Shown: positions 2,961 to 29,541 of the stretch, piece after piece
Layout: every line of letters begins with the position of its first letter
Position numbering within the stretch: the stretch's first letter is position 1
Origin: a virus
DNA: 32,460 bases
Virus record (IMG/VR): IMGVR_UViG_3300030117_000716
Coordinates: 1 to 32,460 of that record
Reading direction: 5' to 3' (one strand)
The notes under the pieces: model-generated
The model's database searches: none
Told to the model about the DNA's origin: nothing
Seen by the model: the letters and a program-made list of their open reading frames with translations, nothing else
Made by a program: the position numbers and the translations under genes

Positions 2961-3172
2961 TGATAACATTAAGAAAGCTTACTACTGACAAAGAGCTATG
3001 GGATGCATTTGTAGAATACATAGATGATGCTATAGCTAAACAACATAAATCACTAGAGCAAGCAACAGAAGTTTCTATGATGTATAAACTACAGGGATCT
3101 ATTGCTTGTTTACGCAGAATGAAGTATCTTAGAGATGAGTTAAATAGTAATGCCAACAAAATTAAAGAATAA
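2960..3172 (+). CDS. Small helical protein of unknown function
   Basis: A 70-aa protein starting in the TAATG overlap with the portal stop, so it is probably translated by coupling. It is charged and looks largely helical (for example TDKELWDAFVEYIDDAI), with no membrane segment or signal peptide. Small proteins of this type directly after the portal are common in marine podoviruses, but I do not know a tested function. Its last 23 bases overlap the next gene in another frame. It may be a head-completion or portal-associated factor; that is a guess from position only. Confidence 0.7.
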   Translation: MITLRKLTTDKELWDAFVEYIDDAIAKQHKSLEQATEVSMMYKLQGSIACLRRMKYLRDELNSNANKIKE

Positions 3173-6100: not shown

Positions 6101-6833
6101 GGGTGACATAAAACCACAATTTAATATTTTTGAACATAATGGTAAATTTTATGTTCAACCTGAAAAAGGTCGTTACTCTCTTGATGAAGGTGAAAATACT
6201 AAAGATTTTCTTGAAACTATATTTGATGATATAGATGAAATAAATAAAAGTTTTGTTAAAGAAAAAAAATATATAGTAGAGTTAAAAAGAGTTGAAGAAC
6301 AGGCAGATCCTGTAGATGCACCAGAAGTAGGACCAGACGATTATATATATGAGATACAATTTATAAAAGATCCTCAAACTAAATCAATGAGAGAAAGAGA
6401 AGGTAGAAAATTTTTAAAATTAGAAAAAGAATCTGGTAGATTACCTATAGCTGATATTCCTGATGCAATGGAAAAATTACTTTCTTCTTTAGTGGTTGAA
6501 GCACAAAGAAGAGGTTCTACTAAAATTGTTTTACCTCCAATAAGTAAAATACTAAAAGCTAGAGATGAAGGTGATGGTAAAATACCTTTAAGTATAAAAC
6601 CTATTTATACAAAATATTTTGATCAAGCTGTAGAAAATTTAATTAAAAAAGCTGATGGTAAAATAAAACCTATTTTTATTGATTTAGAATATAATACAGG
6701 AACTTACGGAGCTTTTAATTTAGAAACTGTTAAAGGTAAGGGTTTAGATATTAGCGATATAGTAAAAGATGTAGAAAAAGTAAAAGGAACAAAAACTTTA
6801 ACTGTTGGTTTAGCAAAAGGTGGGTTAATATAA
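3150..6833 (+). CDS. Large virion-associated protein (1227 aa), probable ejected or internal protein
   Basis: The start overlaps the preceding gene by 23 bases; the upstream Shine-Dalgarno is weak (GATGAG). Residues about 30-95 (YVNLPSIHG, YSEDELYDML, then an Ala/Lys-rich helix) resemble a small module often found at the ends of phage virion proteins. FYKGGLA follows at 98-104. Residues about 330-400 hold three FTF-containing strands (TIFTFD, SIFTFN, GVFTFS). The C-terminal third has GHIRFAL (about 893) followed by INEIQFD (E910, Q912, D914) and a helical segment (LLSSLVVEAQRRGSTKIVLP), a pattern that resembles the GHVRF...EEIQSD domain of large polyvalent phage proteins. The protein ends in LAKGGLI, whose codons also form the ribosome-binding site of the next gene. 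Very AT-rich. Function is inferred from size and position. Confidence 0.7.
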   Translation: MPTKLKNKTNLIVKETGKPVFKLNGEHVSEKSATIKIDDFYVNLPSIHGNMRYSEDELYDMLMNNKIEATSVHKKHSDAIKAAKKRSKNLTIIKGSGFYKGGLAKYMETKKQTEEAFNLSDFFKETFKLQEPPAIKFGRELKEEVKNLTGTNTKDKGMSYADLIFDSIPLSNVGDPDEEYETSMETLYKAFNDNPKDFLKQLITGIGDNLGINRPSYLFGVPSAFLTTTPLKEDALLENPYGYGKEIVTDIATNVYDLFTKTEDMRAQQIYDKSFKNLTGEEQNKIRESILGNIVTTAEVAALGGFTYGAARRAIRENIANQNIDHSPNAYISSPNTTKTIFTFDKNEIVEKEVDADYISPWKIETEDSIFTFNSNPINRNVEKNIDFNKGVFTFSPTIEALNNFPNYSTLKNKQLIAPSSLWTHLTNSKINNKTVLKSAGGEKVFAQKALDFYVEQNIIDPKLVKNIDFDSDSPKEISKIYELIESSLYKFNKATKKAKAFPFLDDPNDIKYEVDLGHTKKYFSSAEDLEIYIRETNNDFFNTINKALVSTALGGRSIVYTVDSYKNFNSLDPTMGGTGFDPALSLDQLQRYDLGDRSVLRLSDSPVFNTNVVPFSKTQTQVEIGLKMSGNNQNNFNVDYNDNFDDLQGILVLRNAANIKSANVQAVNSILPYTKKMNMAIQEYLKNIRIKGGKTGVTTKFNEAISNSIFNIENRLKAIIKKNPALIQNRFKDPSIYGGESFQQYDQSILTLLTDTEIEDVSLGPVKSLFYTKKLFDLGITGKSFKKSSLSKKFLSEIQEVFDINLPEDFLDDSVLTFFSEFDSVWNDIQRIQRNYGINFQNIRSKAEEDLILKYMEEVNLQVNKNTDLSPVAGAKRSSLNYVHGFGSESLGHIRFALTPDRDLLVINEIQFDVPQSLYKIARRAGESIDLPKTIVNFKDLPNDVKDYFKQKLFSYAYPDTFGKGDSGYKIGAKDFNSLRLSMGDIKPQFNIFEHNGKFYVQPEKGRYSLDEGENTKDFLETIFDDIDEINKSFVKEKKYIVELKRVEEQADPVDAPEVGPDDYIYEIQFIKDPQTKSMREREGRKFLKLEKESGRLPIADIPDAMEKLLSSLVVEAQRRGSTKIVLPPISKILKARDEGDGKIPLSIKPIYTKYFDQAVENLIKKADGKIKPIFIDLEYNTGTYGAFNLETVKGKGLDISDIVKDVEKVKGTKTLTVGLAKGGLI

Positions 6834-13120: not shown

Positions 13121-15565
13121 ATGGTAGATAGTGTACAAACTTTTAGAGCAGTTTGTGTAGGTGGTTTAAACACATCTAATAATGTTTTGTCTCAAGGTGC
13201 TGATCAACCGGGAAGTGCTACAGATTTATTAAACTATGAACCTGCATTAGAAGGTGGTTACAGAAGATTAAGTGGGTTTACTAATTCATATGGAACAGTA
13301 ACAGGCACAGGTTCAGTTTTAGGCGTTGCTGTTGTTAATGGAATACAGCAAGGTTTACTAGCAATGAGAAAACCTTCTTCAGGAAATAACTATTTACATT
13401 ATTGGAATTACTACTATCAATTTAATGTTGCCTCTGATGCTAATTTAACAGTCGGTGAAACAATTACAGAAAGAACAAGTGCAGGTGATTCATCTACAGC
13501 AACTCTCTTAACTGGAACATTAGTTTCAAAAAATTCAAATACTATTATAGTTAATTTTGGAAAACTTCCTTCTGCTGTATTTACAAATGGTAATGCTATA
13601 TCAGATGATGATTTTAGTACAAGTACTACATTAACTTCTGTTCCTGCTGTTATTGGTTGGGTAGAAATTACTTGTGATGTAATAGCTAATGATAGAGATG
13701 GTGTATCTGCTTCTGCTTCCATATCTGCAGGTAATAATGCTGTGATAGGTGGAGCTTTAGCTGATGGAGGAGCAGTTAATTTTGTTACAGCTGCTTCAGA
13801 ACAACCTAGACAAGTTACAATTTTTGGATCTGGAAATGAAACAGGTAGAACTTTTACTATTACTGGAACAGATAATTTAGATTTAGCAAAAGTTGAAGCT
13901 ATAGCAGGACCAAATAATACTACTGTTTCTACTTCAGGGTATTTTAAAACTGTTACTAGTGTGTCTGTTAGTATACCTACTCAAGTTATAGTTAAAGCAG
14001 GTGGTGATGAATCAAGCAGAAAATTTACTGTAACTGGAACAGACTCTGAAGATGCTACACTTGAAGAAGTAATTGATGGTCCTAATGCTTCAACCACAAC
14101 TGGAACTGAATTATTTAAAACTATTACTCAAATATCTGTTGATGATGCAACTGCAGGAGCTATAGAGGTAGGTACATCTTCAGATGATAATGGAATATGT
14201 GAATCACAAACTCCGGGAAGTGCAAGTAATTTAACTATTAACGGTGCTTTAGCTTCTACAGGAACAGTAAGTTTTGCTGCAGCGACTGCAGGAGCAATAG
14301 AAATAGGTTCAGGAACTGGTCAATTTAGACAGTCTAATCCTGTAATGACAGGTGTTACCAAAGTTAGAACTTCTGTAGTAGACTTTGGTGTAAAGAGATT
14401 AGTATTAACAGATGGTATTAATCCTGCAGCACTATATGATGATAGCAATGGTTATGTTCAAATAACAGATGCTAATGCTCCAACAGATCCTAAATTTTCT
14501 GAAGTTTACGCAAAGCATTTATTTTTAGCAGGAGATCCTTTAAAGCCACAAGAATTATTTTTTAGTTCTATAAGTAGTGAAACAGAATTTAGTCCTGCAC
14601 TAGGAGCAGGTGTTATTAATGTTGGTTTTGATATTGTTGCTTTAAAAGTTTTTCGTAATATTTTATATATATTTGGAACAAATTCAATTAAAAGAATAGT
14701 AGGTAATACTTCTATAGATTTTAAACTTGAAAACGTAACAAATAACTTAGGCTGTTTAGCTACAGATAGTGTTGTAGAAATAGGTGGAGATTTAATATTT
14801 TTAGCACCAGATGGTATAAGACCTATTGGTGGTACTAATAAAATTGGTGATGTTAATCTAGAAACTGTTTCTAAAAAAATACATACAACTGTTCAAGATT
14901 TAATAACTACAGAAGATTTATCTACACTATCTTCTGTTCTTATTCGTTCAAAATCTCAATTTAGATATTTATTTTCTTCAACAGATTCTAAAGGTTTATT
15001 AGGTGCATTAAGAGAAAGTGGCTCTGGGTATGGTTTTGAATTTAGTACTCTTGATGGTATAAATGTTACTTGTGCTAATAGTGGATATATAGGAACAGAT
15101 GAAATTATTGTTCATGGGGATAGTAATGGAAAAGTTTATGCACAAGAAAGTGGAACATCTTTTGATGGTGAAAATATTGTTAGTATATATCAAACACCTT
15201 TTGTGTATTTTCAAGACCCAAGACAAAGAAAGTTTTTTTATGAGTTAGCAGGTTATTTAAGATCTGAAGGTGTAAGTTCTTTATTAGTTTCTGTTGTTTA
15301 TGATTTTGGAGATGTTGATACACTTGATCCTGATAATTTAACATTACCTACTGTGACTCCTGCTGCTGAGTTTGGTGACACTAGGTATCAAGGTGCTGAC
15401 GGAACAACTTTTTCTTTATTTGATGGTAATCCATCTCCTGTAGAAAGTCTTTCATTTTCAGGTTCAGGAAAATCAATTTCTTTGCGTTTTGTTACAGATG
15501 GAACAGATCCAAGTCATAGCGTTCAAGGATATACAATTACTTACGGATTAGGAGATATAAGGTAA
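13121..15565 (+). CDS. Tail nozzle, tail tubular protein B-like, with internal repeat insertion
   Basis: An 814-aa protein starting directly after the previous stop. The N-terminus (GGLNTSNNVLSQ, DLLNYEPALEGGYRRLSGF) is the pattern I associate with podovirus nozzle proteins, which form the tail tip. The C-terminal half continues with propeller-like strands (HLFLAGDPLKPQELFFSS, GTNSIKRIVGN, LIFLAPDGIRPIGG). Residues about 200-400 are an insertion of beta-repeats, including an exact 57-residue tandem duplication (for example FTITGTD at 245 and FTVTGTD at 302). Two PG pairs are written CCGGG. The stop overlaps the fibre start (TAATG). Confidence 0.65.
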   Translation: MVDSVQTFRAVCVGGLNTSNNVLSQGADQPGSATDLLNYEPALEGGYRRLSGFTNSYGTVTGTGSVLGVAVVNGIQQGLLAMRKPSSGNNYLHYWNYYYQFNVASDANLTVGETITERTSAGDSSTATLLTGTLVSKNSNTIIVNFGKLPSAVFTNGNAISDDDFSTSTTLTSVPAVIGWVEITCDVIANDRDGVSASASISAGNNAVIGGALADGGAVNFVTAASEQPRQVTIFGSGNETGRTFTITGTDNLDLAKVEAIAGPNNTTVSTSGYFKTVTSVSVSIPTQVIVKAGGDESSRKFTVTGTDSEDATLEEVIDGPNASTTTGTELFKTITQISVDDATAGAIEVGTSSDDNGICESQTPGSASNLTINGALASTGTVSFAAATAGAIEIGSGTGQFRQSNPVMTGVTKVRTSVVDFGVKRLVLTDGINPAALYDDSNGYVQITDANAPTDPKFSEVYAKHLFLAGDPLKPQELFFSSISSETEFSPALGAGVINVGFDIVALKVFRNILYIFGTNSIKRIVGNTSIDFKLENVTNNLGCLATDSVVEIGGDLIFLAPDGIRPIGGTNKIGDVNLETVSKKIHTTVQDLITTEDLSTLSSVLIRSKSQFRYLFSSTDSKGLLGALRESGSGYGFEFSTLDGINVTCANSGYIGTDEIIVHGDSNGKVYAQESGTSFDGENIVSIYQTPFVYFQDPRQRKFFYELAGYLRSEGVSSLLVSVVYDFGDVDTLDPDNLTLPTVTPAAEFGDTRYQGADGTTFSLFDGNPSPVESLSFSGSGKSISLRFVTDGTDPSHSVQGYTITYGLGDIR
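13808..14149 (+). repeat. 57-residue tandem duplication inside the nozzle-like gene
   Basis: Copies at residues 230-286 and 287-343 align without gaps: R243/R300, FTITGTD/FTVTGTD, GPN at 263/320 and FKT at 275/332 are each 57 apart. Flanking half-units (GALA at 211 and 376; TAGAIEVG at 344 and TAGAIEIG at 389) extend the repeat family. The nucleotide copies have diverged, so the duplication is old. Confidence 0.8.
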
Positions 15566-18396
15566 TGGGACAAGGTTATACAAGAACTAATTTAGCAGAT
15601 ATTACTCCGGGAGCAGTTGTAAAATCTGCACCTATTAATGCTGAATTTAATGCTGTTGTAAGTGCTTTTGCATCTTCCACAGGGCACACACATGATGGAA
15701 CTTCTGCAGAAGGTGGTCCTATAACAAAGTTATTAGGTATGGCAATTACAATAGGAGATGCTACTGCAGGTACAGATATTGTTATTACATTTGATGGTGA
15801 GACAAATGATGGTGTATTAACGTGGATGGAAGATGAAGATTATTTTAAATTTTCAGATGATATTCTTATTAACAGTAATGAAAAATTACAGTTTAGAGAT
15901 ACAGGTATTTATATAAGTTCTAATGCAGATGGTGATTTAGATATTGTATCAGATGGAACAGCAGTTGATTCTATTAATATAGAGTCAGCAGGAGGTATAA
16001 CTCTTGATGCAGGTACAGCAGGTAGTGGTATTATTTATGAAGATGATGGTACTGAGATGTTGCGTATCTATAATAGTAGTAGTGATGTTTATATTGAATC
16101 AAAAGTTTCAGATAAAGATATTCTTATAAGAGGTAATGATGGTGGTAGTCCAGTAACTGCTGTTACCTTTGATATGTCAGCAGCAGGTAAAGCTACTTTT
16201 GGTGGTGGAATTACTTCTACAACTTTAGAAGCTACTGGTGGCATTACTTCTACAGCATCTGCAAATACGTTAGGTGCTACATCTTTTAATGATGCTGATG
16301 TTACTAATGTAGATACCATACGTTTAAAGAATATAGCAGGTGCTGTTGCTCCTACACCTATTTTCATTCTTGGCAGCACCACACTTGCAAATGGAGATTA
16401 TGACTTTGACATAGCAAGTCACGACGGATCAAATGGATTAAAGCTAGGGGGAACTCTTGTTACTGCTAGTGCAACTGAAATTAATTTAATAGCAGGTGGT
16501 ACAAGCAGGGGTACTACTGCTGTAGCTTCAGGTGATGGCATACTCATTAATGATGCAGGTACAATGCGTATGACTAATGTAGACACTGTATCAACTTACC
16601 TTGATTCAATTAGTGTAGGTGGTAGTAACATTGTAACAACAGGTGATTTAGATACTGGTTCTATTACTTCTGGATTTGGAAACATTGATATAGGTAGTAG
16701 CAACCTTACAGCTACAGGTACAATATCTTTAGGAGCTACAAGTTTTAATGATAATAATGTAACAAATGTAGGATCAATTGCTTTAGATACTATTACTAAT
16801 GATGGAACTGATATTACGTTAGATTCTAGTGGAGATATTATACTAGATGCTGCAGGTAATAATGTAACAATTAAATCTGGTGGAACATCTATACTTGATG
16901 TAGCAAATAATTCTTCTGACGTTGAATTAACTGTTAGTGTAGCTGACAAAAACTTTAAAATAAAAGGCACTGATAGTAGTTCAGCTATTACTGCTCTTGA
17001 TATAGATATGGCAGCAGCAGGTGCAGCAACCTTTAACGATAAAATTATAGCCACAGAATTAGATATTAGTGGTGATGTAGATATTGATGGAACTTTAGAA
17101 GCAGATGTAATAACTGTTAATGGAACTGCTCTTAATACTGTAATTGCAGGAGTTACTGTTACTAACGCTACTACTGCTGCTGTAGCAACTACAGTTACAA
17201 TTACAGATAATGAAAGTACAAATGAAGATAATGCTATTGTCTTTACTTCAGGTGGAGATGTAGATGGTGGTAATTTAGGGTTAGAAAGTGATGGCAATTT
17301 AACTTACAACCCAAGCACAGGAAAGCTTACTGCAACACAACTTGCAGGAGAATTACAAACAGCAGCTCAGACTAATGTAACTTCTTTAGGAACTTTAACT
17401 GCTCTTACTGTTGACAATCTTAATATAGATGGTAACACTATTATTTCTACTGACTCCAATGGAGATATTAATTTAACTCCTAATGGCACAGGTAAAGTAA
17501 ACATTACATCTACAAGCACTTTTAATACATTTCAACTAACTTCAGCAGATGATACAAATTCATCTGCACCAGATATGGTTTTTTTAAGAAATAGTTCAAG
17601 TCCTGCTGACAATGACTTTTTAGGAAGAATTGATTTTCAAGGTACAAATTCAGCAGCTGAAACTCATATTTATGGTGGTATTTTTAGTAGAGCTATGGAT
17701 GTTACAGATGGAACTGAAGATGGTCAAATACATTTTAGTACGTCTAAGGGTGGTACTTTAGATACAACAGGTGACTTGATTGTAAATTCAGCTCTTGTTT
17801 CAGCACCTAAAACAGGATTTTATTATAATGAAATTGCAAATGGTGCAGGTACTTTTTCTGGTCAAAGTTATTCTAGTTATACTGTAGCTAATATATTTAC
17901 TGATACTTATGATATTTATGATATTTATCTTAGAGATTGGTCATTTAATACTGACGATATAAATGTACGAATGGAACTTTTAGATTCAAGTGGTTCAGCA
18001 ATTACTGGTTTAACTTATGAATTTTATAATCTTTGGATAGGAACTAGTACTGGAGACCAATTTCAAACTGATGGTTCTGCTTCAAGTGTATCAACATCTG
18101 ACTGGATGATAAGTGGTAAGGATGAATTTTCTGTAGGAAATGAATCTGATGAAGGATTTAGTGGTCTTTTCAGACTTTTTAATACAAGAAATACTAATAA
18201 ACCTGTTCTAGGTCACGTAGTATATACAAATTATATGAGTGTTGATGGTTATGCTACACAAACATACGGTAGTACTTGGCTAAATACTACCACTGCTGCA
18301 GTTACTGGAGTTAAAATATTACCTTCATCAGGAACAATTAATAGTGGTACTGTAACAGTTTATGGTTATAAAAGCAGTGGTTTTAACCCTGCATAA
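15565..18396 (+). CDS. Tail fibre, receptor-binding protein
   Basis: A 943-aa protein. The N-terminus (YTRTNLADITPGAVVKSAPI) is the likely virion-attachment part, followed by GHTHDGT (40-46), an HxH motif seen in phage fibres. The shaft is Asp/Gly/Thr/Ser-rich with imperfect repeats: SSSDVYIESKVSDKDILI (about 171) matches NSSDVELTVSVADKNFKI (about 449), and TSFNDADVTNV (about 240) matches TSFNDNNVTNV (about 393). From about 720 the composition changes to an aromatic-rich domain (DTYDIYDIYLRDWSFNTDD) ending SGTINSGTVTVYGYK, which looks like a lectin-type beta-sandwich that would touch the host surface. No chaperone autocleavage motif or enzyme signature was recognised. Confidence 0.85.
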   Translation: MGQGYTRTNLADITPGAVVKSAPINAEFNAVVSAFASSTGHTHDGTSAEGGPITKLLGMAITIGDATAGTDIVITFDGETNDGVLTWMEDEDYFKFSDDILINSNEKLQFRDTGIYISSNADGDLDIVSDGTAVDSINIESAGGITLDAGTAGSGIIYEDDGTEMLRIYNSSSDVYIESKVSDKDILIRGNDGGSPVTAVTFDMSAAGKATFGGGITSTTLEATGGITSTASANTLGATSFNDADVTNVDTIRLKNIAGAVAPTPIFILGSTTLANGDYDFDIASHDGSNGLKLGGTLVTASATEINLIAGGTSRGTTAVASGDGILINDAGTMRMTNVDTVSTYLDSISVGGSNIVTTGDLDTGSITSGFGNIDIGSSNLTATGTISLGATSFNDNNVTNVGSIALDTITNDGTDITLDSSGDIILDAAGNNVTIKSGGTSILDVANNSSDVELTVSVADKNFKIKGTDSSSAITALDIDMAAAGAATFNDKIIATELDISGDVDIDGTLEADVITVNGTALNTVIAGVTVTNATTAAVATTVTITDNESTNEDNAIVFTSGGDVDGGNLGLESDGNLTYNPSTGKLTATQLAGELQTAAQTNVTSLGTLTALTVDNLNIDGNTIISTDSNGDINLTPNGTGKVNITSTSTFNTFQLTSADDTNSSAPDMVFLRNSSSPADNDFLGRIDFQGTNSAAETHIYGGIFSRAMDVTDGTEDGQIHFSTSKGGTLDTTGDLIVNSALVSAPKTGFYYNEIANGAGTFSGQSYSSYTVANIFTDTYDIYDIYLRDWSFNTDDINVRMELLDSSGSAITGLTYEFYNLWIGTSTGDQFQTDGSASSVSTSDWMISGKDEFSVGNESDEGFSGLFRLFNTRNTNKPVLGHVVYTNYMSVDGYATQTYGSTWLNTTTAAVTGVKILPSSGTINSGTVTVYGYKSSGFNPA

Positions 18397-19410: not shown

Positions 19411-22400
19411 ATGGCGAAAAGAGAAATAACAGCAAAAGAAGCTGCTAAAAGACTTAAAGCTTTTGGTTTTAAAGTTGGCACTGATAAAGATGGTAAGCCT
19501 ATTAAACCTAGTTGGACAGCTATAGATACTTTTGTCAAGAATAATCCAAAAGCTAAATCTGTGCTTAAAGCCAACAAAGGTGCATTTGTACAAAGAAGAT
19601 CAGGTTTTTCTAATGGTGGTATTACTGAAAAGCAAAGTATTTTATTAAAAACAGCAAATGATTTAAAAGCCCAAAAAGATGCAGGTAAGATAACTATGGG
19701 CGAATACTATCAAAAACTAAATGAAATACCTATTGATTCAGATAAAAATATTACTGGTGTTACAGATAATATTAAAAAAGCTAGACAAAACTATTTAAAA
19801 AGATTAATAGATTCAACAAAAGGATATTTAGAAAGCTCAAAAAAAGTTGAACAGAACTATAATCCTGTAGGTGAATCAGCCGAAGCTAAAAAAGCTAGGT
19901 TGGCACAATATAATTATAGTCCTCCTAAATCTTCAACTACTAAACCTGCTACTGGTAAATTTACTGCTACTACTCCTAAAACTACTACTGCAACAAAACC
20001 TCAATCTTCACCAGTATTGCCTAAATCTTCCACACCTTTAGGATCATCATCAGGCACAACAAAGAAGGCTAAGAGTATTGTAACAGGTGATCAAACTTAT
20101 TCAAATACTTATGGTATTGATAAACAAGCATTAGAAGATAATAAAGAAGCTGTTAAAGAATTTGCTGATCTTTATTATTTATCTATGCAAACTGGTGTAG
20201 ATGGTAATGCATATGATGCAGCTTTGAAAAAGTTAGGTATTAATACTGATGAGGCTTATGCAGGAGCTAAGACTAATATAGCTAAGGATATATTAAAAGC
20301 AGCAGGTTACAGTGTTGATGATTCAATAAATTTTTATGGTAATAAAGAAGAACCAAAAGATATAGGAGCTAAGATATTAAAAGATAGAATAGCAGATCTT
20401 GATAAAGCTAAAGCTAATCTTAAACCCGGACAAGTTCTTGAAAATAGTAATGTGGCTAATAGTCTTTATTTACAAAGAGAGTTAGAAAATAGGGGTTTAA
20501 ATTTTAAAGATGTTACAAGTGCTACTTATAGAGATGATTATACCTTAGATACTCTTCCAGAGGGTGATTTAATTTTTGATTCAGATGGTAAGTGGACAGG
20601 TAAAACAACTTCTCCGGGACTTAATACAGATAATAAAATAAATATTTTAGAATGGGATGTATCAGATCCTCCTCTTGGTTCTACTCCAAGAAGATCTGCT
20701 CCTGCTCCTGATATGCCAGCTGCTATTTCATTAGAACCTAGTCAAGAAGAAATTGATAGAGCTGCAGAAATATTTTCAAAAGATGGAACTGTAACATTAC
20801 CCACTGGTAGTTATGATTTACCATCAATAGAAACACCTACTATAAAAGCTCCTGAAGGAACAACAGCAGTAGATTCACCAACATTTGAAGGTAATATAGA
20901 TAGACAAACTGAACAGTTTAGACAAAGAGCAAAAGATCAAGCTCAACTGATACAGCCACAAACTCGTGCAGAAAAGATAGCAGCAGGTCAAAATGTAGGA
21001 AAACTTGAGCAAAGACTTTATCAAAACAGACAGGGTATGTCTACATATGTTCTTGGTGTATATAATAGTGAAGGTGTATGGACTCCTTCTCAACCTATAC
21101 CTCAAGGATATAGAGTAGCTAATGTAGGATTAGCACCTTATTTAGTAAGACAAGCTGCTGAAGCTCCTAAATTTAGTGATATAGAATCTGATGAGACAGG
21201 TACAAAAACTCCAGATAATATTGATCCTAGTACTGTTGTTAATCCTGAATATGGAAAACCTCAATTTGGTATGGGTAATAGACCTGTTCCAAAAGGTTAT
21301 TATTCTGGTCCTGCAGATGGTGTTCATAAGTATGGTGAAGGACCTTATGCAGAACAAACACAAGCCTTTTTAGATTCTATTGGAATGACGTTTGAAGAAT
21401 ATTCTCAAAGTAAAGATACTTATTATCAAGGTGGTATGATTAGAGGTTATGATAATGGTGGTATGCCTGAAACTTTTAATACAGATACATTTGCTGATCG
21501 TTTTCCTGTTGATCAAGTTCTTGATTCTGTTTCAAATGTTGTTCCTGATAATGCTACTTCTAAAGGAGATGAAACTAAGACACCTACAGTGACAGTTGCA
21601 GGAGAACCTCTTACCAAAGAACAGGTAGCACAAGGTCAAGCTGATCTTACTGCAGGTGCAGTATTAGATCCTGCAGGTACAGTAGTAGCAGCTCCTGTAT
21701 CACAGATTAATCCTGATGCAGAGGGCACAGTATTAGGTGCTACTACAGGTCAAGCTTTAGGAACTGCTCCTATTATTACTGATCCTGCACAGGTTGATAA
21801 AACAGTTACTGCAGACACTCCAACTAAACCTGATGTTACTAAAGTTACAACTCAGAAAGCAGAAGATAAAATAAAAACTGCACTTGAGGGTGGACTTGAC
21901 GTTCAAAAAATGTTAGATAATGTTAAAGGATCTTCATTTTATAAGCCTGAATATAATCCTGAAACAGGTAAAATAACAATTGAAGAACCTCGGTTAGAAA
22001 AAATGGTAGTGAGAATTGATGAAGATGGAAATGAAATTCCACAAGAACCTTTACCACCAGTTAAAAGAGAAGTTACTCCTGAAGAGTTTGCAGATATGTT
22101 TGGTGCTAATGTTGCAGACTTTACATCTGAAGGTGTACAAGCTGCTACATCTACTGGTCCTACTAAAGAAATAGAAGCACAGGAACAAGATACTACAAAG
22201 GTATCTGATCTTGAAGCAGCTCAAGGAACAGCTGCTGAAGCAGTTGCTGCTAAAAGAGAACTTCAAACAGGTGGGATTGATAGAGGTGCATTAGAAACTG
22301 CAATAGCTAGTACATTTCCACCTAATGCTTATGTAATGATGCCTAGATATGATGAAGAAAAAGGTGGATATGTAAACCCTCTTACTGGTGAAGTAAAATC

Positions 22401-23688
22401 AGAAAAAGAAATAGCAGAACAATATGGTTTAAATATTGAAGACTTTACAAGTCAAAGTGAACTTGTAGATGGTAGTGCAGTAGATCAAACTAAAGTAGAG
22501 GAAGTTTTTGGTACAGGAGAGGTACAAGCTGCTTCTATGAGAGATGAATTAGAAGAATTAGATAAAGAATTTCAAGGAGGTAATGTACCACTTTGGGCAG
22601 CGTCAAAAGTGCGTCAAGCTAAAGCAATAATGGCAGCAAGAGGTTTAAGTGCATCTAGTATGGCAGGTCAAGCTGTTATACAAGCTACTATGGAAGCATC
22701 ATTACCAATAGCACAAGTAGATACTGCTAATAAACAACAGATGGCTTTACTTGCAGCAGAGCAAAGAGCTAAGTTTTTGCAGATGGATTTTGATCAAGAG
22801 TTTCAAACTAAAGTTATGAATGCTGCAAAAGTTAGTGAAGTTGCTAATATGAACTTTACTGCAGAACAGCAGGTAGCTTTAGAGAATGCTAAGATGGCAC
22901 AGACTATGAATCTTGCTAACTTAAATAATAATCAAGCATTAGTTATGGCTGAAGCTGCTCAACTCTCTCAATTAGAAATGGCTAGTTTAAGTAATAGACA
23001 ACAAGCTCAAGTGCAAAATGCACAAAACTTTTTGCAAATAGATATGGCTAATCTTAATAACGAACAACAGACAGAAATATTTAAAGCACAAACTATTGCT
23101 AATACTATTTTGAGTGATACTGCTGCTACTAACGCATCTGAACAGTTTAATGCATCAAGTGAGAATCAAACTGAACAATTTTTTGCTACTTTAAAATCTC
23201 AAATTAGTCAATTTAATTCTGCACAAACAAATGCTATGTCACAGTTTAATGCAGGTGAAGCTAATGCTATACAAAAGTTTAACTCAGAGTTGCAAAATCA
23301 AAGAGAAATTTTTAATTCACAAATGTATGCACAAATAGCACAAGCTAATGCTAAATGGAGACAAGATACTACTACTATAAACAATGCTGCTGTTAACTCA
23401 AGCAACTTTCAATTTGCAAAAGATGTTAATGGTTTAACTAATAAAGCTATTGATGAGATTTGGCAAAGAGAAAGAGACTTAATGAGTTTTGCATTTACTT
23501 CTTCAGAAAGTGCTATGGAAAGAACAACTAGATTACTTCTTGGAGATAAGTCATTAGAAGGTATTAGAATACAAGCTGATGCACAAGAAGGGGTAGCTAA
23601 AACAAGTTTCTTTGCAAGATTGTTATTTGGTAATAAAGGTTTAAATATATTTGGTGAAGGTGGATTATTAAATCTAGGAGGAAGCTAA
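19411..23688 (+). CDS. Very large internal virion (ejection) protein, 1425 aa, with periodic helical repeats
   Basis: The N-terminus (ITAKEAAKRLKAFGFKV) is basic; FSNGGIT follows at 67. Residues about 170-225 are a Ser/Thr/Pro linker. Acidic Pro/Thr-rich segments continue to about 1060, with two related blocks (GANVADFTSEG and GLNIEDFTSQS). Residues about 1065-1110 (PLWAASKVRQAKAIMAARGL, SSMAGQAVIQATMEASLPIA) form a module I recognise from marine phage virion proteins. From 1125 come five 22-residue units and then six Phe at exact 11-residue steps, very Gln/Asn-rich, followed by a helical end. The build recalls T7 gp15/gp16-type ejection proteins, but sequence similarity is not claimed. Its end carries the AGGAGG of the next gene. 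Confidence 0.7.
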   Translation: MAKREITAKEAAKRLKAFGFKVGTDKDGKPIKPSWTAIDTFVKNNPKAKSVLKANKGAFVQRRSGFSNGGITEKQSILLKTANDLKAQKDAGKITMGEYYQKLNEIPIDSDKNITGVTDNIKKARQNYLKRLIDSTKGYLESSKKVEQNYNPVGESAEAKKARLAQYNYSPPKSSTTKPATGKFTATTPKTTTATKPQSSPVLPKSSTPLGSSSGTTKKAKSIVTGDQTYSNTYGIDKQALEDNKEAVKEFADLYYLSMQTGVDGNAYDAALKKLGINTDEAYAGAKTNIAKDILKAAGYSVDDSINFYGNKEEPKDIGAKILKDRIADLDKAKANLKPGQVLENSNVANSLYLQRELENRGLNFKDVTSATYRDDYTLDTLPEGDLIFDSDGKWTGKTTSPGLNTDNKINILEWDVSDPPLGSTPRRSAPAPDMPAAISLEPSQEEIDRAAEIFSKDGTVTLPTGSYDLPSIETPTIKAPEGTTAVDSPTFEGNIDRQTEQFRQRAKDQAQLIQPQTRAEKIAAGQNVGKLEQRLYQNRQGMSTYVLGVYNSEGVWTPSQPIPQGYRVANVGLAPYLVRQAAEAPKFSDIESDETGTKTPDNIDPSTVVNPEYGKPQFGMGNRPVPKGYYSGPADGVHKYGEGPYAEQTQAFLDSIGMTFEEYSQSKDTYYQGGMIRGYDNGGMPETFNTDTFADRFPVDQVLDSVSNVVPDNATSKGDETKTPTVTVAGEPLTKEQVAQGQADLTAGAVLDPAGTVVAAPVSQINPDAEGTVLGATTGQALGTAPIITDPAQVDKTVTADTPTKPDVTKVTTQKAEDKIKTALEGGLDVQKMLDNVKGSSFYKPEYNPETGKITIEEPRLEKMVVRIDEDGNEIPQEPLPPVKREVTPEEFADMFGANVADFTSEGVQAATSTGPTKEIEAQEQDTTKVSDLEAAQGTAAEAVAAKRELQTGGIDRGALETAIASTFPPNAYVMMPRYDEEKGGYVNPLTGEVKSEKEIAEQYGLNIEDFTSQSELVDGSAVDQTKVEEVFGTGEVQAASMRDELEELDKEFQGGNVPLWAASKVRQAKAIMAARGLSASSMAGQAVIQATMEASLPIAQVDTANKQQMALLAAEQRAKFLQMDFDQEFQTKVMNAAKVSEVANMNFTAEQQVALENAKMAQTMNLANLNNNQALVMAEAAQLSQLEMASLSNRQQAQVQNAQNFLQIDMANLNNEQQTEIFKAQTIANTILSDTAATNASEQFNASSENQTEQFFATLKSQISQFNSAQTNAMSQFNAGEANAIQKFNSELQNQREIFNSQMYAQIAQANAKWRQDTTTINNAAVNSSNFQFAKDVNGLTNKAIDEIWQRERDLMSFAFTSSESAMERTTRLLLGDKSLEGIRIQADAQEGVAKTSFFARLLFGNKGLNIFGEGGLLNLGGS
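22783..23319 (+). repeat. 22- and 11-residue periodic repeat region in the 1425-aa protein
   Basis: Five 22-residue units (residues 1125-1234) place MDFDQEF, MNFTAEQ, ANLNNNQ, ASLSNRQ and ANLNNEQ in exact register. Then Phe occurs at 1246, 1257, 1268, 1279, 1290 and 1301, each 11 residues apart, usually within QFN. The period of 11 (and 22) is that of hendecad coiled coils, which are straighter than heptad ones. Confidence 0.8.
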
Positions 23689-23912
23689 TGTCGTTAGAGT
23701 ATACAAAAAGACTTTTAGAATTAAGAGATTATGCTACAGATGTTTTAACAGAAAAAACTTCTGAAAAAAATAAATCTAATTCTTTAGTGAGTAGACCTAA
23801 CAATGAGGAAGAAGAAGAAGAAAATCCCATTGATGAAGTTCAAAAAAATGCTTTTTTAGAAGTAGTGATGTCAAATTTAGAATTAAAGGAAAAATTAGAT
23901 GACAGCGTTTGA
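23688..23912 (+). CDS. Small acidic protein of unknown function
   Basis: A 74-aa protein with a strong Shine-Dalgarno (AGGAGG, 23676-23681) inside the end of the previous gene and a TAATG overlap with it. It has a helical start (EYTKRLLELRDYATDVL), a disordered acidic middle with six consecutive Glu (about 39-44) and a helical end. Not recognised. Lying among virion protein genes it may be a small structural or assembly factor. It overlaps the next gene by 14 bases. Confidence 0.65.
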   Translation: MSLEYTKRLLELRDYATDVLTEKTSEKNKSNSLVSRPNNEEEEEENPIDEVQKNAFLEVVMSNLELKEKLDDSV

Positions 23913-24441
23913 TGCACCTATTGCAGGACAATCTTTAACAACAGAGTCAAAAGGAGCACCTTATGAAAGACCTCCTGAATATGTTGAGTTAAAAGATGTT
24001 TTAAATTTACATATGTCTAATTTAGCAGATAAAAATGCAATAGAAGATATAATTTATTTTAGTGAAATGGGTATGGATGTAAAAACATTAACGGAGGCTT
24101 TACTAAGAAGTGCTGTTTTAGAGGGAATGCATAGTATTGATAATAGTATTAATGCTGCTCCTGTTTTACATGAAAGAATTACAGGAATACTACACGCTTC
24201 TGGAATGGATTTTGATGAGGGTCTTGTTGATAAACAACAGGAACAAGGTTTAAAATATGCTAGAAGAATGGGTAGGGCATCTAAAGTTGTACAAGATGCT
24301 AATAATGTAGATACTTTTGAAGAACCAGATTTAGTTGAGCTTGCAGGAATGGTAGGAGAAGAACCACAACAAGAAACTGCAGAAGCAGAACAACAAGTTG
24401 AAGAGTCTGATGTTCAAGGTTTAATGAGTAGGAGAGCATAA
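23899..24441 (+). CDS. Conserved marine phage protein of unknown function
   Basis: A 180-aa protein starting MTAFDAPIAGQSLT, with a Pro-rich segment APYERPPEYVELKDVL and a mostly helical core (TLTEALLRSAVLEGMHSIDN, HERITGILHASGMDFDEG). The C-terminus is Glu/Gln-rich and probably disordered. I recognise the style from uncultured marine phage genomes, where it also lies among ejection protein genes, but know no function. It overlaps the preceding gene by 14 bases and ends one base before the next start. Confidence 0.65.
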   Translation: MTAFDAPIAGQSLTTESKGAPYERPPEYVELKDVLNLHMSNLADKNAIEDIIYFSEMGMDVKTLTEALLRSAVLEGMHSIDNSINAAPVLHERITGILHASGMDFDEGLVDKQQEQGLKYARRMGRASKVVQDANNVDTFEEPDLVELAGMVGEEPQQETAEAEQQVEESDVQGLMSRRA

Positions 24442-24442
24442 G

Positions 24443-25648
24443 ATGGTTGAATTTAGATGGGAAGGTTTAACTAAATACCAAGAGGAAGTAACACAAGAAA
24501 AAAGGTGGCAAGAAAAATTAGATATTGAAAAGAAAGATCAAGAGTTAAGAGAAAGAGAGCTTGAGTTAAAAGAAAAAACTTTAGATTTTAAAATTTTAAA
24601 ACAAGGTGAAGATCTTGCAGCAGAAGTTTTAAAATCTCTTGGTATTACTGCTTATGGATCACTATCTTCTAGTAATTCTAGTTCTAAATCTTCTAGTGGA
24701 GGTATTAATTTAGTTGATGGTAAAGTTGATCAGAGTAGTAATACAATTTTTAAGAACAAAATTAAGGATGCATATCCCGGAGTTACTGATGAAGCTTTTA
24801 CAAGACTACTAGAAAGCACTAACTTGCAACCTAATACAATGGAATTATTGTATAATGCTTTAAATAAAACTTCAGCAGCTAGAAAAAAAGATAATAGACC
24901 TGTTTTATCTAGAGAAGAAATAGGAACATTTTTAGATGATGCTATATTAACAGAGGGTAAACCTTTTGAAAATGTTATAGAAAAATTATCAAAAAGATTT
25001 CCAAATGGTATACCAGATGTTATTGAACAAGCAATTGGAAATATTGAAAACTTAGTAACTACTAGTGTTGACTTGGGTGCATTTGAAAATTTAAATCCAA
25101 TGGCAGATGCAAATGATTTAAAATTTGTAAGAGACGAAATGTTTAATACTTTAAATATAAGATTTGTAGAGTTTAGAAATAGAATTGCAAAAGCTTCTGA
25201 TAAATTAAATAATATAGATGATAAAAGCAAATCTAGATTAGATAAAGCATTAGAATCATATTTAAACACTTTAGGAAATGATTTTAGTACTATTAATAAA
25301 AAACAGGGAGATTATAAAAGAACTGAATTATTTTACAGACTTGGCACTAGTGATTTATTTAACAAAGTTATTCAAAATATACCCGGAAAAGATTTTCCAA
25401 ATAGTTTTAAAGATAGTCCTCTTTTTAAAAGACCAACACAATACTTTTTTATACCAGAAAATTTAGCAAAACAATCAGGTGCAAATAGTGTTGAAATTGC
25501 AAAAAGATTAACTGAACTAGGTATTCTTGAAGATTATAATCCTAAAAATCCTGATAATTTCTTTTCACAGTATAGAATAGAAGGACAAACAGGTAGTTAT
25601 CAAAACAAACCTGCTAATTTAGAACTTAATATTATTCCAGAAGGATAA
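24443..25648 (+). CDS. Probable internal virion protein, 401 aa
   Basis: The N-terminus is a long charged coiled coil (about 15-60, for example KKDQELRERELELKEKTLDF), followed by a Ser-rich linker (about 72-88). The remainder is helical and soluble (EEIGTFLDDAILTEG, PNGIPDVIEQAIGNIENL, FRNRIAKASDKLNNIDD) with no membrane segment. Both Pro-Gly pairs are written CCCGG. It is placed between a conserved helical protein and the 1295-aa protein, so an internal virion or ejection role is likely. No enzyme motif was found. Confidence 0.6.
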   Translation: MVEFRWEGLTKYQEEVTQEKRWQEKLDIEKKDQELRERELELKEKTLDFKILKQGEDLAAEVLKSLGITAYGSLSSSNSSSKSSSGGINLVDGKVDQSSNTIFKNKIKDAYPGVTDEAFTRLLESTNLQPNTMELLYNALNKTSAARKKDNRPVLSREEIGTFLDDAILTEGKPFENVIEKLSKRFPNGIPDVIEQAIGNIENLVTTSVDLGAFENLNPMADANDLKFVRDEMFNTLNIRFVEFRNRIAKASDKLNNIDDKSKSRLDKALESYLNTLGNDFSTINKKQGDYKRTELFYRLGTSDLFNKVIQNIPGKDFPNSFKDSPLFKRPTQYFFIPENLAKQSGANSVEIAKRLTELGILEDYNPKNPDNFFSQYRIEGQTGSYQNKPANLELNIIPEG

Positions 25649-25653
25649 AATTA

Positions 25654-28600
25654 ATGAGTGAAGTTATATCTAAGGATGACTTTCAGAAAGAATACTTTAA
25701 ATTATTTAAAGATCCTGTGTTTTCTATTGATGAAGAGGATAAAAAAGAAAGTCCTTTAACAGATGTTTTTGGAATTGAAATACAACCTGAAAAAAAAGAA
25801 ACACCTAAAATAAGTTATGATTTAGATGTTCTTAATGAACAGCTTAATCCACCTGATGAAAAAGGTTTTGTTAATATAAATAATTATGTTGACAACATGA
25901 TGGAAATGAGGTTAGCTTTTGAAGATAAAAAGATGCCTTATCCAAAAATGTTAGAGACAGGTCAAAAAATAAAAACAAATACGTTGACTCCAGAAGATAT
26001 TTATAATGATAAAACATTAATGAAAGCTGTAAGAAATTTTGTCAGTGCAAGGTATGGTCCTAATTTAATTGAAAGATTAACAGGACTTGACAATATGGGA
26101 ACTACTGCTGCTACAAATTTAGCTAGAAAGTTAAGAGGTTTTCAATACTTTAAAGATATGGATGATAGGAAGATCTTTGAAAGGTGGCAGAACCATATGA
26201 GATCTTGGGATGCAGGAAACTTATTTACAGTAGGTACTGAAGTAAATGCAGGTTTGTTAGCTACAGAAGAAGAGAGAGCTGCAATGAGTGCAGGTTATAT
26301 CCTTTTTGATTTACAGGATAATGTTTTTAAAGGTGCAATATCAGGAACTGGAAACTATAAAGAGATGGGAGATGCTCTTTACGATTATACTAAATCAACA
26401 GTATTTGATCCATTAAATTTAATGTCTTTTGGTTTAACTAAACTTCTTACATCACCTTTTGATAAACAAATAAAGACAAGTTTTAAACAAATGCAAAAGG
26501 GGTACTATAAGAGACTTATAAACTCTGGTGTTTCTAAAGAAGTTGCAAGAAAAAAAGTTAGAAATGCAATGTTTAATAGAAGCACACTTGCATCTACTTT
26601 AGCTTTTGTTCTTCCAGATTTAGCTCTTAGTGTTGGTGTAGATTTAACAGCACAGTTACAATTAATAAATGTGGGTAATCAAGAGGAACTTGATACTTTT
26701 AGAGCAGTAACAGTTGGATTAATAGGTACAGCTTTACCTCTTACAGTAGGTTTTGGAACTGTTACATATAGAAAACTTAAAGAACTTCCAATGTTTAAAA
26801 AGTATTTTTTAAACTATGAAGACATAATAGATTCTGTTCAAAAAAGTAAAAAGAAGTTTAGCACTGTAGTAAAAGAAAAAGTTTTATTACAAAAAAATAT
26901 TTTAATAGATGCTGTTGACAATACCTTTGGTGTCATATCAGGAAGTAATAAAGATTTGAAGAAGTGGGAGGAAGCTAAACAAGCAGCTATAAAGTTATTA
27001 AAGGATACAGGTAAACAAGATCAAGACATTGCAAACTCAGAAAACTTTTTAAGAGAATTTTTCTATGGTGTAAAAGATAAAAATGGAGATGTAATTACTA
27101 AAGGTTACATAGAAGCTTTGGTAGATGCAGGTTGGATGTTCAGTAAAGACTTACTAGATGACGATCAAAAAGCTACAAACATTCTTGCAGATACAATAAC
27201 GTATCTTGATGATGAAGTTATTGAAAGAATAATGAAAGCTTATGAAGCTAAAACTGGTATAAGTCTTAACCTAGATTACAATGGGCAAGCTCTTAAATCA
27301 AGATACATAACATTAGCATCAACAGGTGCTAAAGTTAATCAGATAACATCTGCCGCAGTGAGGAGTAATTTTTCTTTACATAAAGATATGCAAAAATCCA
27401 TAATTGATATGTCTCAACATAGATTTGGTAGAGGTGGTATTTATCAAGATGAACTTCTTGATACACCTAAACGAGGTAGATTTCTTTTAGGAACATATAA
27501 GAGACTTTTAACTGCTCACCCTGCAACAACAGGAGCAAACCTAAGAGGTTTTGTTGCTCTAAGTTTAGCTGACCAAGCTGCAGAAGCTTTTACGAGTGCT
27601 GTAAATATAGCACAGTCAGGTCTTTATAAAGTTCTAGGTGATCAAGACAAGGCCACATATTATGCTAGACAGTCTTATGGAAACTTTATGAGTTCCCTTA
27701 GAAGAGGTATCTCTGTTCTTGATCCTTCTTTAAATGTGGCTTATGCAAGAATAATATTAGACTTAAATCCTAAAGTTTACTCTAGAATATTCAGAGACAT
27801 AGCAGGTGATGGTGGTCCTTTAGAAAGTCTTTCATTATTTAATATGGATAGTAAAACTAATCCTGTGTTGAGTAAACTAGATTCTTTTACAAAAGGAGTT
27901 TCACACATAAGTCTTAATAGATTACAAGATGAATACACAAAATTATTTGCTTTTTCTAATAACTTAAATAAAAGAATTATGCAGAAATATGGTGTAAGTC
28001 CTAAAGCATTTTTTACAGCTGCAGAAAATTCTGGTTTAATAAATACAAAAGAATTTTTAGATGAAGTTTTAATGCCAGCTGCTTATCAAACTGGAAGACA
28101 GACAGGTTCAGTAAATTGGTCTACAATAAATAAAGGAAAAGGTAAAAACTTTTTTAGGGAAGTTGCTTCAGGTGTTGAATTTATTACTAATAAAACACCT
28201 GCAGGTATACTAGTTCCATTTGGTAGTTTTATGAATACTGTTCTAGCTACCTTTGGAGACTATTCAGGTTTTAATTTTTTAAGATTTAGTGTAGAAAAAT
28301 CTCTAGGTAAAAAACTTGATCCAGAAAGTCAAGTTATACATGAAGCTTTTGGTAAGATGGCTGTTGGTTGGACTTATCTTATGTATAGAACATTTTATGA
28401 TGTTAGTGGTAATGGAAACTCTGCTATAGAAAAAGTTGCAACTGGAAGAAGTTACAATCAAAACAGAGATGATGTAGGTGGTCTTAATGATTCTCAATTT
28501 GATTGGCCTATCAATCAAGTTGAAATGGCAGCACAAGTTTTAGCACACGCTATTAGTGGAGATGGTAGAGATGTTATGAGGGATATGAGAAACTTAAATC

Positions 28601-29541
28601 CTCTTGATGGATCTCTTGCTAATTACATTACAGAAAACTTTAACGCTTCTAATATTCCTGCTGAATTACTTAAAGAATTAAGTTTGTCTTTAGGTGTATC
28701 AGCTATTAGAGATACAGATAAATTTTTTCAATCAATAAGTCAGTCAATATATGATCTTTCCATATCTGCTCAAGCAGATGGAGGTTTGTCGCCATCTCAC
28801 AGAGATATTATTAATATAATAGCTGATGGTATGGGAAAAATTATACAAGGATCTTTAAGACCTGCTGAACCTTATGATGTTATTAATAACTTATTTACTA
28901 ATGATGGAAAGATACCTGATCTTAGACAAGGTAATCAAAGATTTAATGCAGCATTTAAATATATTGATGGTATGTTTAGTGAAAATTTACCTGATAGATA
29001 TTTTATTACTCAAGGTTATGAGAAAAGAAAAAATTTAGATGTGTCTAAAATATTGTTTATGGGTAGAAGAATGCCTCCAAATACATTAGGTATGATGATG
29101 TTGAAATCTGCTGAATATAAAGATTGGAAATTTTCTCAGTGGAAAGGAGATCCAGAGGTAAAGAATGCAATGGATAAAATTGCAGCTCCTATTTTTGAAT
29201 CAATAGCTGCTAAAGTTTACAGTAAAAATACAGATTTTTTTAGAAAAGATTTTAAAGATAAAGTTGGAATTGTAAAGTATATAGAAAAAAAACTTAAAGA
29301 AAGAGTTAAAGAAAGATTTATTAATTTTGCACCTCAATATCTACAAACTATAGCTTACATTTCAAAACAACCTAGAAAGAAAATAGCAGAAGCTAAAGCT
29401 CAATATGATGTATCAGGTTACGACTTAGATGAGATACTTAATATGCCTGATGGTTTAGAGGTACTAGAATCTATTAAATTTTTCTTAAAAGAATATGACG
29501 AGAGAGAATTCAGAAGATTAGATTTTAATAATCCATTTTAA
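25654..29541 (+). CDS. Very large internal virion (ejection) protein, 1295 aa
   Basis: The last + strand gene. Its ribosome-binding site (AGAAGGATAAA) lies in the end of the previous gene. The N-terminal 130 residues are acidic and probably extended. A hydrophobic pair at about 310-326 and 348-366 (TLASTLAFVLPDLALSVGV; TVGLIGTALPLTVGFGTV) could insert in a membrane. The long C-terminal part is helical and includes PAGILVPFGSFMNTVLATFG, a style known from large phage polyvalent or ejection proteins. Size and last-gene position match T7 gp16-type proteins that help DNA cross the cell envelope; no N-terminal lysozyme domain is seen. It ends in a 4-base convergent overlap with the - strand operon. 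Confidence 0.65.
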   Translation: MSEVISKDDFQKEYFKLFKDPVFSIDEEDKKESPLTDVFGIEIQPEKKETPKISYDLDVLNEQLNPPDEKGFVNINNYVDNMMEMRLAFEDKKMPYPKMLETGQKIKTNTLTPEDIYNDKTLMKAVRNFVSARYGPNLIERLTGLDNMGTTAATNLARKLRGFQYFKDMDDRKIFERWQNHMRSWDAGNLFTVGTEVNAGLLATEEERAAMSAGYILFDLQDNVFKGAISGTGNYKEMGDALYDYTKSTVFDPLNLMSFGLTKLLTSPFDKQIKTSFKQMQKGYYKRLINSGVSKEVARKKVRNAMFNRSTLASTLAFVLPDLALSVGVDLTAQLQLINVGNQEELDTFRAVTVGLIGTALPLTVGFGTVTYRKLKELPMFKKYFLNYEDIIDSVQKSKKKFSTVVKEKVLLQKNILIDAVDNTFGVISGSNKDLKKWEEAKQAAIKLLKDTGKQDQDIANSENFLREFFYGVKDKNGDVITKGYIEALVDAGWMFSKDLLDDDQKATNILADTITYLDDEVIERIMKAYEAKTGISLNLDYNGQALKSRYITLASTGAKVNQITSAAVRSNFSLHKDMQKSIIDMSQHRFGRGGIYQDELLDTPKRGRFLLGTYKRLLTAHPATTGANLRGFVALSLADQAAEAFTSAVNIAQSGLYKVLGDQDKATYYARQSYGNFMSSLRRGISVLDPSLNVAYARIILDLNPKVYSRIFRDIAGDGGPLESLSLFNMDSKTNPVLSKLDSFTKGVSHISLNRLQDEYTKLFAFSNNLNKRIMQKYGVSPKAFFTAAENSGLINTKEFLDEVLMPAAYQTGRQTGSVNWSTINKGKGKNFFREVASGVEFITNKTPAGILVPFGSFMNTVLATFGDYSGFNFLRFSVEKSLGKKLDPESQVIHEAFGKMAVGWTYLMYRTFYDVSGNGNSAIEKVATGRSYNQNRDDVGGLNDSQFDWPINQVEMAAQVLAHAISGDGRDVMRDMRNLNPLDGSLANYITENFNASNIPAELLKELSLSLGVSAIRDTDKFFQSISQSIYDLSISAQADGGLSPSHRDIINIIADGMGKIIQGSLRPAEPYDVINNLFTNDGKIPDLRQGNQRFNAAFKYIDGMFSENLPDRYFITQGYEKRKNLDVSKILFMGRRMPPNTLGMMMLKSAEYKDWKFSQWKGDPEVKNAMDKIAAPIFESIAAKVYSKNTDFFRKDFKDKVGIVKYIEKKLKERVKERFINFAPQYLQTIAYISKQPRKKIAEAKAQYDVSGYDLDEILNMPDGLEVLESIKFFLKEYDEREFRRLDFNNPF

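What the first reader, a model, noticed from the sequence alone, without database searches (positions are those of the whole stretch)
22783..23319. Exact 22- then 11-residue periodicity: a hendecad rod in the 1425-aa protein
Five gapless 22-residue units (residues 1125-1234) are followed by Phe at 1246, 1257, 1268, 1279, 1290 and 1301, each exactly 11 apart, in a Gln/Asn-rich background. An 11-residue period gives a nearly straight coiled coil. In a probable ejected protein this could form a trans-envelope tube or a rod inside the capsid. The switch from 22 to 11 suggests growth by unit duplication followed by divergence.
Basis: partly seen in the sequence, partly recalled or inferred. Interest (0 to 1): 0.65.

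Follow-up and report, generated by a model that had tools for sequence, protein, structure and literature searches.

The report
Quantised helical arm in marine podovirus
A large, unnamed virion-type protein of abundant marine short-tailed phages ends in a helical arm whose length changes between phages only in exact 11-residue steps (22 and even 110 in its first part), which points to a modular, length-adjustable part that probably serves DNA delivery; the predicted fold is a stack of short helices followed by one long helix, not a simple straight rod.

Summary
The periodicity is real and exactly placed: 22-residue units at 1125-1234, then Phe every 11 residues at 1246-1301. The window is a fragment of an HMO-2011-type podovirus. 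The 1425-aa protein is the ortholog of HMO-2011 phage1322_25 and CHOED_013; only its last ~370 residues are conserved.

Across relatives the distance between two conserved anchors flanking the repeats is always 8 modulo 11: 173/173 distinct sequences, then 54/54 fetched after the rule was set (19 lengths, 10 to 70 hendecads). Flanking regions show no such rule. The first arm varies mostly in 22-residue steps, in long members in 110; the Phe arm in 11s.

The straight-rod reading is only half right. In 79% of 1822 22-mers there is a helix-start capping box (4% and 2% at control positions). AlphaFold of a 60-hendecad relative gives a ~16-residue helix plus ~6-residue loop per 22-mer (alpha-solenoid), then one 122-residue helix over the Phe region. 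The window's own model is all-helical but low-confidence.

Gene position (block like SU10's ejected gp20-24) suggests an internal or ejected protein; no homology or proteomics proves it. Sequence libraries and PDB gave no described family; BFVD matches are mainly evident relatives.

The parts
19411..23688 (+). 1425-aa protein carrying the repeats; ortholog of HMO-2011 phage1322_25 and CHOED_013
19411..22440 (+). residues 1-1010: lineage-specific N-part, low Q/N, Pro 5-8%, with [FY]xxGG motifs; not conserved (protein length in relatives 459-1425 aa)
22558..22725 (+). residues 1050-1105: N-anchor (W A ... ARGLSASSMAGQA ... PIAQ), conserved helical hairpin
22738..23133 (+). residues 1110-1241: 22-residue units (starting 1110, 1132, 1154, 1176, 1198) and the transition unit 1220-1241; helix-loop solenoid inferred from capping boxes and from the AF2 model of relative L205
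23134..23331 (+). residues 1242-1307: six hendecads of consensus xxQFNAxxxN with Phe at 1246+11k; uninterrupted helix
23332..23556 (+). residues 1308-1382: C-anchor (NAKWRQ ... IWQRERDLMSFAF ...)
23557..23685 (+). residues 1383-1425: variable tail; Peptidase_S74 in some relatives
23899..24441 (+). 180-aa downstream gene of the same conserved block
24443..25648 (+). 401-aa downstream gene of the block
25654..29541 (+). 1295-aa downstream gene of the block, last before the strand switch; two hydrophobic segments

Best explanation
The region is the conserved C-terminal module of an uncharacterised podovirus virion protein, most likely one of the internal proteins ejected with the DNA. It has five parts: a helical hairpin anchor; an arm of 22-residue helix-loop units that stack as a single-layer alpha-solenoid; an uninterrupted hendecad helix with one Phe per 11 residues; a second helical anchor; and a variable tail. 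Arm length evolves by gain or loss of whole units (22 residues, in long members 110; 11 in the Phe helix), so every helix keeps its facing. Shown: the periodicity, the length rule, the different chemistry of the two arms, conservation and synteny. Predicted: helix-loop versus continuous helix. Inferred: virion-internal location, ejection, and a role as a length-adjustable spacer or stack in the delivery apparatus.
For: Spacing is 8 mod 11 in 173/173 relatives (two spurious double-anchor hits removed after inspection) and in 54/54 held-out ones with five new lengths. Lengths of the flanks scatter over all residues mod 11. At least 21 length changes on an anchor-only tree. The N-arm is odd-numbered in nearly all lineages, i.e. 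it changes by 22, and runs 13/23/33/43/53/63 and 19/29/39/49 hendecads in two lineages; the C-arm runs mostly 5-11. Capping box [STND]xx[QE] in 1437/1822 22-mers against 80/1822 and 25/1425 at control positions. AF2 of L205: 16-residue helices every 22 residues, pLDDT about 80-90 over much of residues 170-480, then helix 630-751. AF2 of the window: all helix, no strand, 90-residue helix over the Phe region. Two opposite hydrophobic seams in 173/173 rods, as expected for a helix packed between two neighbours. Gene order repeat protein - ~180 aa - 400-900 aa - very large protein - strand switch is conserved and resembles SU10 gp20-24, which are present in virions and absent from genome-release intermediates (PMC9509320).
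Against: No sequence or profile link to T7 gp13-16 or SU10 gp20-24. No virion proteomics for any relative was found. The window's own AF2 model has pLDDT about 50 in the 22-mer region and shows loops in only some units. The L205 model rests on 10 sequences, two of its five models score far lower (43 against 65), and AF2 can favour solenoids for any tandem repeat. Oligomeric state could not be tested.
Confidence: 0.5

Rival explanations
1. One reading: the whole repeat region is a nearly straight hendecad coiled coil that assembles into an alpha-helical tube or rod for DNA passage, like the phiX174 pilot protein H, with an amide-lined lumen.
For: Repeat region is Q/N-rich (29% in the window), Pro 0.4% across rods; length quantised in 11s; bifaceted helix; the three hendecads of phiX174 H (PMC7354561) fit the rod profile in one register only, shuffle p about 0.004.
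Against: Helix N-caps in 79% of 22-mers; AF2 solenoid in L205; 117 nm of helix in 70-hendecad members against a 71-nm capsid in MQM1; the profile scan is not specific, since unrelated helical proteins score as high or higher. It may still hold for the Phe/11 arm alone.
Confidence: 0.2
2. The protein is an external trimeric appendage (fibre- or needle-like) and the Phe/11 helix is its coiled-coil stalk.
For: Three isolates carry a C-terminal Peptidase_S74 domain, in known cases an intramolecular chaperone of trimeric fibres and spikes (general knowledge); the gene follows tail-fibre genes in HMO-2011.
Against: S74 also sits on Salmonella phage 7-11 gp20, annotated as a DNA ejection protein and related to SU10 gp22 of the ejected set; S74 is absent from the window protein and from the other relatives scanned; two opposite seams do not fit a one-stripe trimer; no receptor-binding-type tip was found.
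Confidence: 0.15
3. A ruler analogous to the tail tape measure: unit number sets the length of a virion or periplasmic structure.
For: Tape measure proteins of some siphophages have 11-residue repeats marked by Trp/Phe, with unit duplications and losses (PMC3271669; PMC5099701), the same theme as the Phe arm.
Against: Podoviruses have no long tail (9 nm in MQM1); unit number varies several-fold between contigs of about 53-58 kb; no structure is known to scale with it.
Confidence: 0.1
4. The length rule is only a by-product of recombination between repeats and has no structural meaning.
For: Long members show 110-residue higher-order copies with up to 84% DNA identity in a 150-nt window, so unequal recombination does occur.
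Against: Repeats in the window are too diverged for a DNA array, yet not one off-register length occurs in 227 sequences, while flanks vary freely.
Confidence: 0.1

Closest known systems
HMO-2011 phage1322_25 / CHOED_013 / CRP phage orthologs (hypothetical proteins)
   Same: Same gene, same C-terminal module and gene neighbourhood
   Different: Annotated only as hypothetical; unit numbers differ (15 in CHOED, 20 in HMO-2011, 28 in HTVC115P against 19 here); the long N-part differs
Siphophage tail tape measure proteins with 11-residue Trp/Phe repeats (PMC3271669, PMC5099701)
   Same: 11-residue period marked by aromatics, whole-unit duplication or loss, helical
   Different: Podovirus without a long tail; here a 22-residue helix-loop arm precedes; no sequence match
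phiX174 DNA pilot protein H (PMC7354561)
   Same: Hendecads, Gln/Asn-rich helix; DNA delivery is the known role of H
   Different: H is short (121-residue tube) and has no helix-loop 22-mers; no homology shown; a tube is unproven here
SU10 ejection proteins gp20-24 and 7-11 gp20 (phrog_4287/6121)
   Same: Gene position; S74 cap shared by some members
   Different: No profile similarity once S74 is removed; no 11-residue period detected
Exchangeable apolipoproteins (from memory)
   Same: Tandem 22-mers built on an 11-mer theme
   Different: One lipid-binding face, Pro-punctuated; eukaryotic; not tested here

Membership tests
phage1322_25/CHOED_013 ortholog group | Conserved C-terminal module with both anchors | tested here: met
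phage1322_25/CHOED_013 ortholog group | Position upstream of the ~180-aa, 400-900-aa and very large genes | tested here: met
Tail tape measure protein | 11-residue aromatic repeats, whole-unit length changes | tested here: met
Tail tape measure protein | Sets the length of a long tail | tested here: not met
   podovirus gene set with portal and SU10-type adaptor; related MQM1 tail is 9 nm; no TMP profile hit on this ORF
phiX174 H-type DNA tube | Hendecad helix in the same register | tested here: inconclusive
   one register fits, but the scan is not specific
phiX174 H-type DNA tube | Oligomeric alpha-helical tube | not testable with these tools
   no multimer prediction or experiment available
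Podovirus ejection protein | Homology to known ejection proteins (T7 gp14-16, SU10 gp20-24) | tested here: not met
   no PHROG hit
Podovirus ejection protein | In the virion, lost on genome release | not testable with these tools
   no proteomics found
Peptidase_S74 fibre | S74 domain on this protein | tested here: not met
   absent from the window protein; present in CRP-3, CRP-738 and CRP-235

The most novel reading that the evidence does not exclude
A previously undescribed single-layer alpha-solenoid of 22-residue helix-loop units, fused to a hendecad helix, whose unit number (in 110-residue quanta) tunes the reach of the genome-delivery apparatus of short-tailed phages: a ruler in a phage class thought to need none.
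Probability: 0.2. Interest if true: 0.75.

Novelty: new variant of a known kind. Interest (0 to 1): 0.55.

Why it matters
[quoted passage not shown] An exact length rule over 227 sequences is a rare, quantitative constraint: it gives a clean deletion test (remove 22 or 110 residues versus an off-register number) of whether unit number sets something physical in genome delivery.

Tried and rejected
PHROGs, Pfam and NCBIfam on the protein and its module: no family. The phrog_6121/4287 'ejection protein' hits of S74-bearing relatives vanish once S74 is cut off. PDB sequence searches: nothing. Foldseek PDB: nothing significant for either model; BFVD: mainly evident relatives. hhalign against the SU10/7-11 family: probability 0.3%. 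HMM against T7 gp13-16 and SU10 gp20-24: nothing convincing. A hydrophobic membrane-inserting C-tail: not consistent across relatives. DNA-level tandem array in the window: none. Free pairwise gap lengths as a test of the rule: uninformative because repeats align ambiguously. Downstream genes of ten relatives: no ejection-protein family; the only clear hits are two 'virion structural protein' families for Slicky01. A first mid-anchor script and a first tail script failed and were redone. I first favoured a phiX174-H-like tube on the seam geometry and dropped it.

Full report
WHAT WAS CLAIMED. Five gapless 22-residue units at 1125-1234 of a 1425-aa protein, then Phe every 11 residues from 1246 to 1301; read as a hendecad rod.

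OBSERVATION. Confirmed in detail. The ORF is 19411-23688 on the + strand. Phe positions are exact. Self-identity peaks at lag 22 in 1125-1234 and at lags 33, 44, 11 and 22 in 1235-1312; the maximum over 1125-1312 was reached in 0 of 5000 shuffles, and the Phe register has p about 4e-4 with any period of 7-15 allowed. The DNA has no 33/66-nt tandem array, so the units are old.

CONTEXT. The window is a 32,460-base viral fragment with terminase, a large portal, major capsid and SU10-type adaptor genes, a late block, then a strand switch to a cell-wall hydrolase, DUF3310 and ribonucleotide reductase. Portal and repeat protein both point to the HMO-2011 group and its wider kin: CRP roseophages, pelagiphages HTVC033P/103P/104P/115P, Vibrio CHOED, Aeromonas MQM1, Pseudoalteromonas Slicky01, Sinorhizobium phiM6, Rhizobium phages. 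The protein is the ortholog of phage1322_25 and CHOED_013. Only about residues 1017-1420 are conserved; complete relatives run from 459 to 1425 aa because the N-part is lineage-specific.

THE LENGTH RULE. Two conserved anchors flank the repeats: the N-anchor (...ARGLSASSMAGQA...PIAQ) and the C-anchor (NAxWRQ...IWQRERD). Their distance was 8 mod 11 in every one of 22 regex matches. With profile anchors, 175 distinct sequences gave residue 8 without exception. On inspection two of these were second C-anchor hits inside proteins already counted and were dropped, leaving 173 rods with 14 lengths, 12 to 60 hendecads. Sequences fetched afterwards served as a held-out set: 54 of 54 obey, with five new lengths including 10 and 70 hendecads. 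Lengths before and after the anchors in the same proteins scatter over all residues mod 11. A tree built from the anchors alone needs at least 21 length changes (its forks are poorly resolved).

TWO ARMS, TWO STEPS. A recognisable boundary hendecad splits the region. The Phe arm runs mostly 5-11 hendecads (one outlier of 4, in a 28-hendecad sequence, may be a misassigned boundary). The first arm is odd-numbered in hendecads in nearly all lineages, so it changes by 22 residues. The exceptions are the 19-hendecad set to which the window belongs, one hendecad shorter near the N-anchor, and two single sequences. In long members the first arm takes the values 13, 23, 33, 43, 53, 63 and 19, 29, 39, 49, i.e. 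steps of 110 residues. The strongest self-identity lag in the longest members is 110 (0.53 in L205), with up to 84% DNA identity in a 150-nt window at lag 330 in L208: growth by a five-unit higher-order repeat.

FOLD. AF2 of the window module (63 sequences): all helix, no strand, mean pLDDT 67; a 90-residue helix over the Phe region at about 80, the 22-mer region only about 50. AF2 of the 60-hendecad relative L205 (10 sequences): a ~16-residue helix and a ~6-residue loop in each 22-mer, pLDDT about 80-90 over much of residues 170-480, then one 122-residue helix over the Phe arm; mean 64.8, with model scores of 64.8, 64.4, 58.5, 43.5 and 42.8. Independent of AF2, the helix-start capping box [STND]xx[QE] lies at the predicted helix starts in 1437 of 1822 22-mers (79%), against 4% at the equivalent positions of the first half-unit and 2% in Phe-arm hendecads. 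The Phe arm has consensus xxQFNAxxxN with Phe 81%. Over whole rods the second harmonic of hydrophobicity around the helix exceeds the first in 173/173 (medians 1.79 against 0.56; shuffled 0.54 and 0.50), i.e. two opposite hydrophobic seams, as expected for a helix packed between two neighbours. A phase-permutation test on the 11 phase means was not significant.

FUNCTION. The repeat gene is followed by a ~180-aa, a 400-900-aa and a very large gene before the strand switch, with small insertions in some phages. SU10 has a comparable block, gp20-24, whose products are in the virion and absent from genome-release intermediates (PMC9509320). Salmonella phage 7-11 gp20, related to SU10 gp22, carries a C-terminal S74 domain, as do the repeat proteins of CRP-3, CRP-738 and CRP-235. 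That is an analogy of position and of one accessory domain only: profile comparisons find no homology to SU10 or T7 ejection proteins. I therefore infer, without proof, an internal and probably ejected protein.

RIVALS. A phiX174-H-like tube is attractive for the Gln/Asn-rich helix, and the H hendecads fit the rod profile in one register only, but the same scan scores unrelated helical proteins as high; capping boxes, the L205 model and a nominal 117-nm helix in 70-hendecad members speak against a straight rod through the first arm. An external S74-capped trimer, a tape-measure-like ruler and a pure recombination by-product are set out in their own sections.

VERDICT. Real, exact and family-wide. 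The straight-rod interpretation is half right. The length rule and the predicted 22-residue helix-loop solenoid are, as far as the libraries searched here show, undescribed; the function remains inferred.

Noticed in passing
L205, L208, L209, L210, L225 (repeat region): Higher-order 110-residue (330-nt) block of five 22-mers, present in several copies in long members; lag-110 identity up to 0.53.
   Followed up: yes
L033:4563-6422, L041:3412-5826, L046:3127-5661: Repeat proteins of CRP-3, CRP-738 and CRP-235 end in Peptidase_S74; that of CRP-235 also has an N-terminal LysM domain.
   Followed up: partly
window 6833-9484: 883-aa protein with [FY]xxGG motifs and 'DDIPAQLSDGEYVVPADVVQYYG'; weak tape-measure profile hit (phrog_3547).
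   Followed up: no
window 3150-6833, 6833-9484, 19411-22440: [FY]xxGG-type motifs recur in three different proteins of the block (e.g. GFYKGGLA, GYTNGGVA, GFSNGGIT).
   Followed up: partly
L215, L216, L217: Relatives on short contigs of bacterial MAGs (Maricaulis, Campylobacteraceae), possibly phage contigs in the bins.
   Followed up: partly
window 15565-18396: 943-aa protein without PHROG or Pfam hit; by reading its sequence it looks fibre-like.
   Followed up: no
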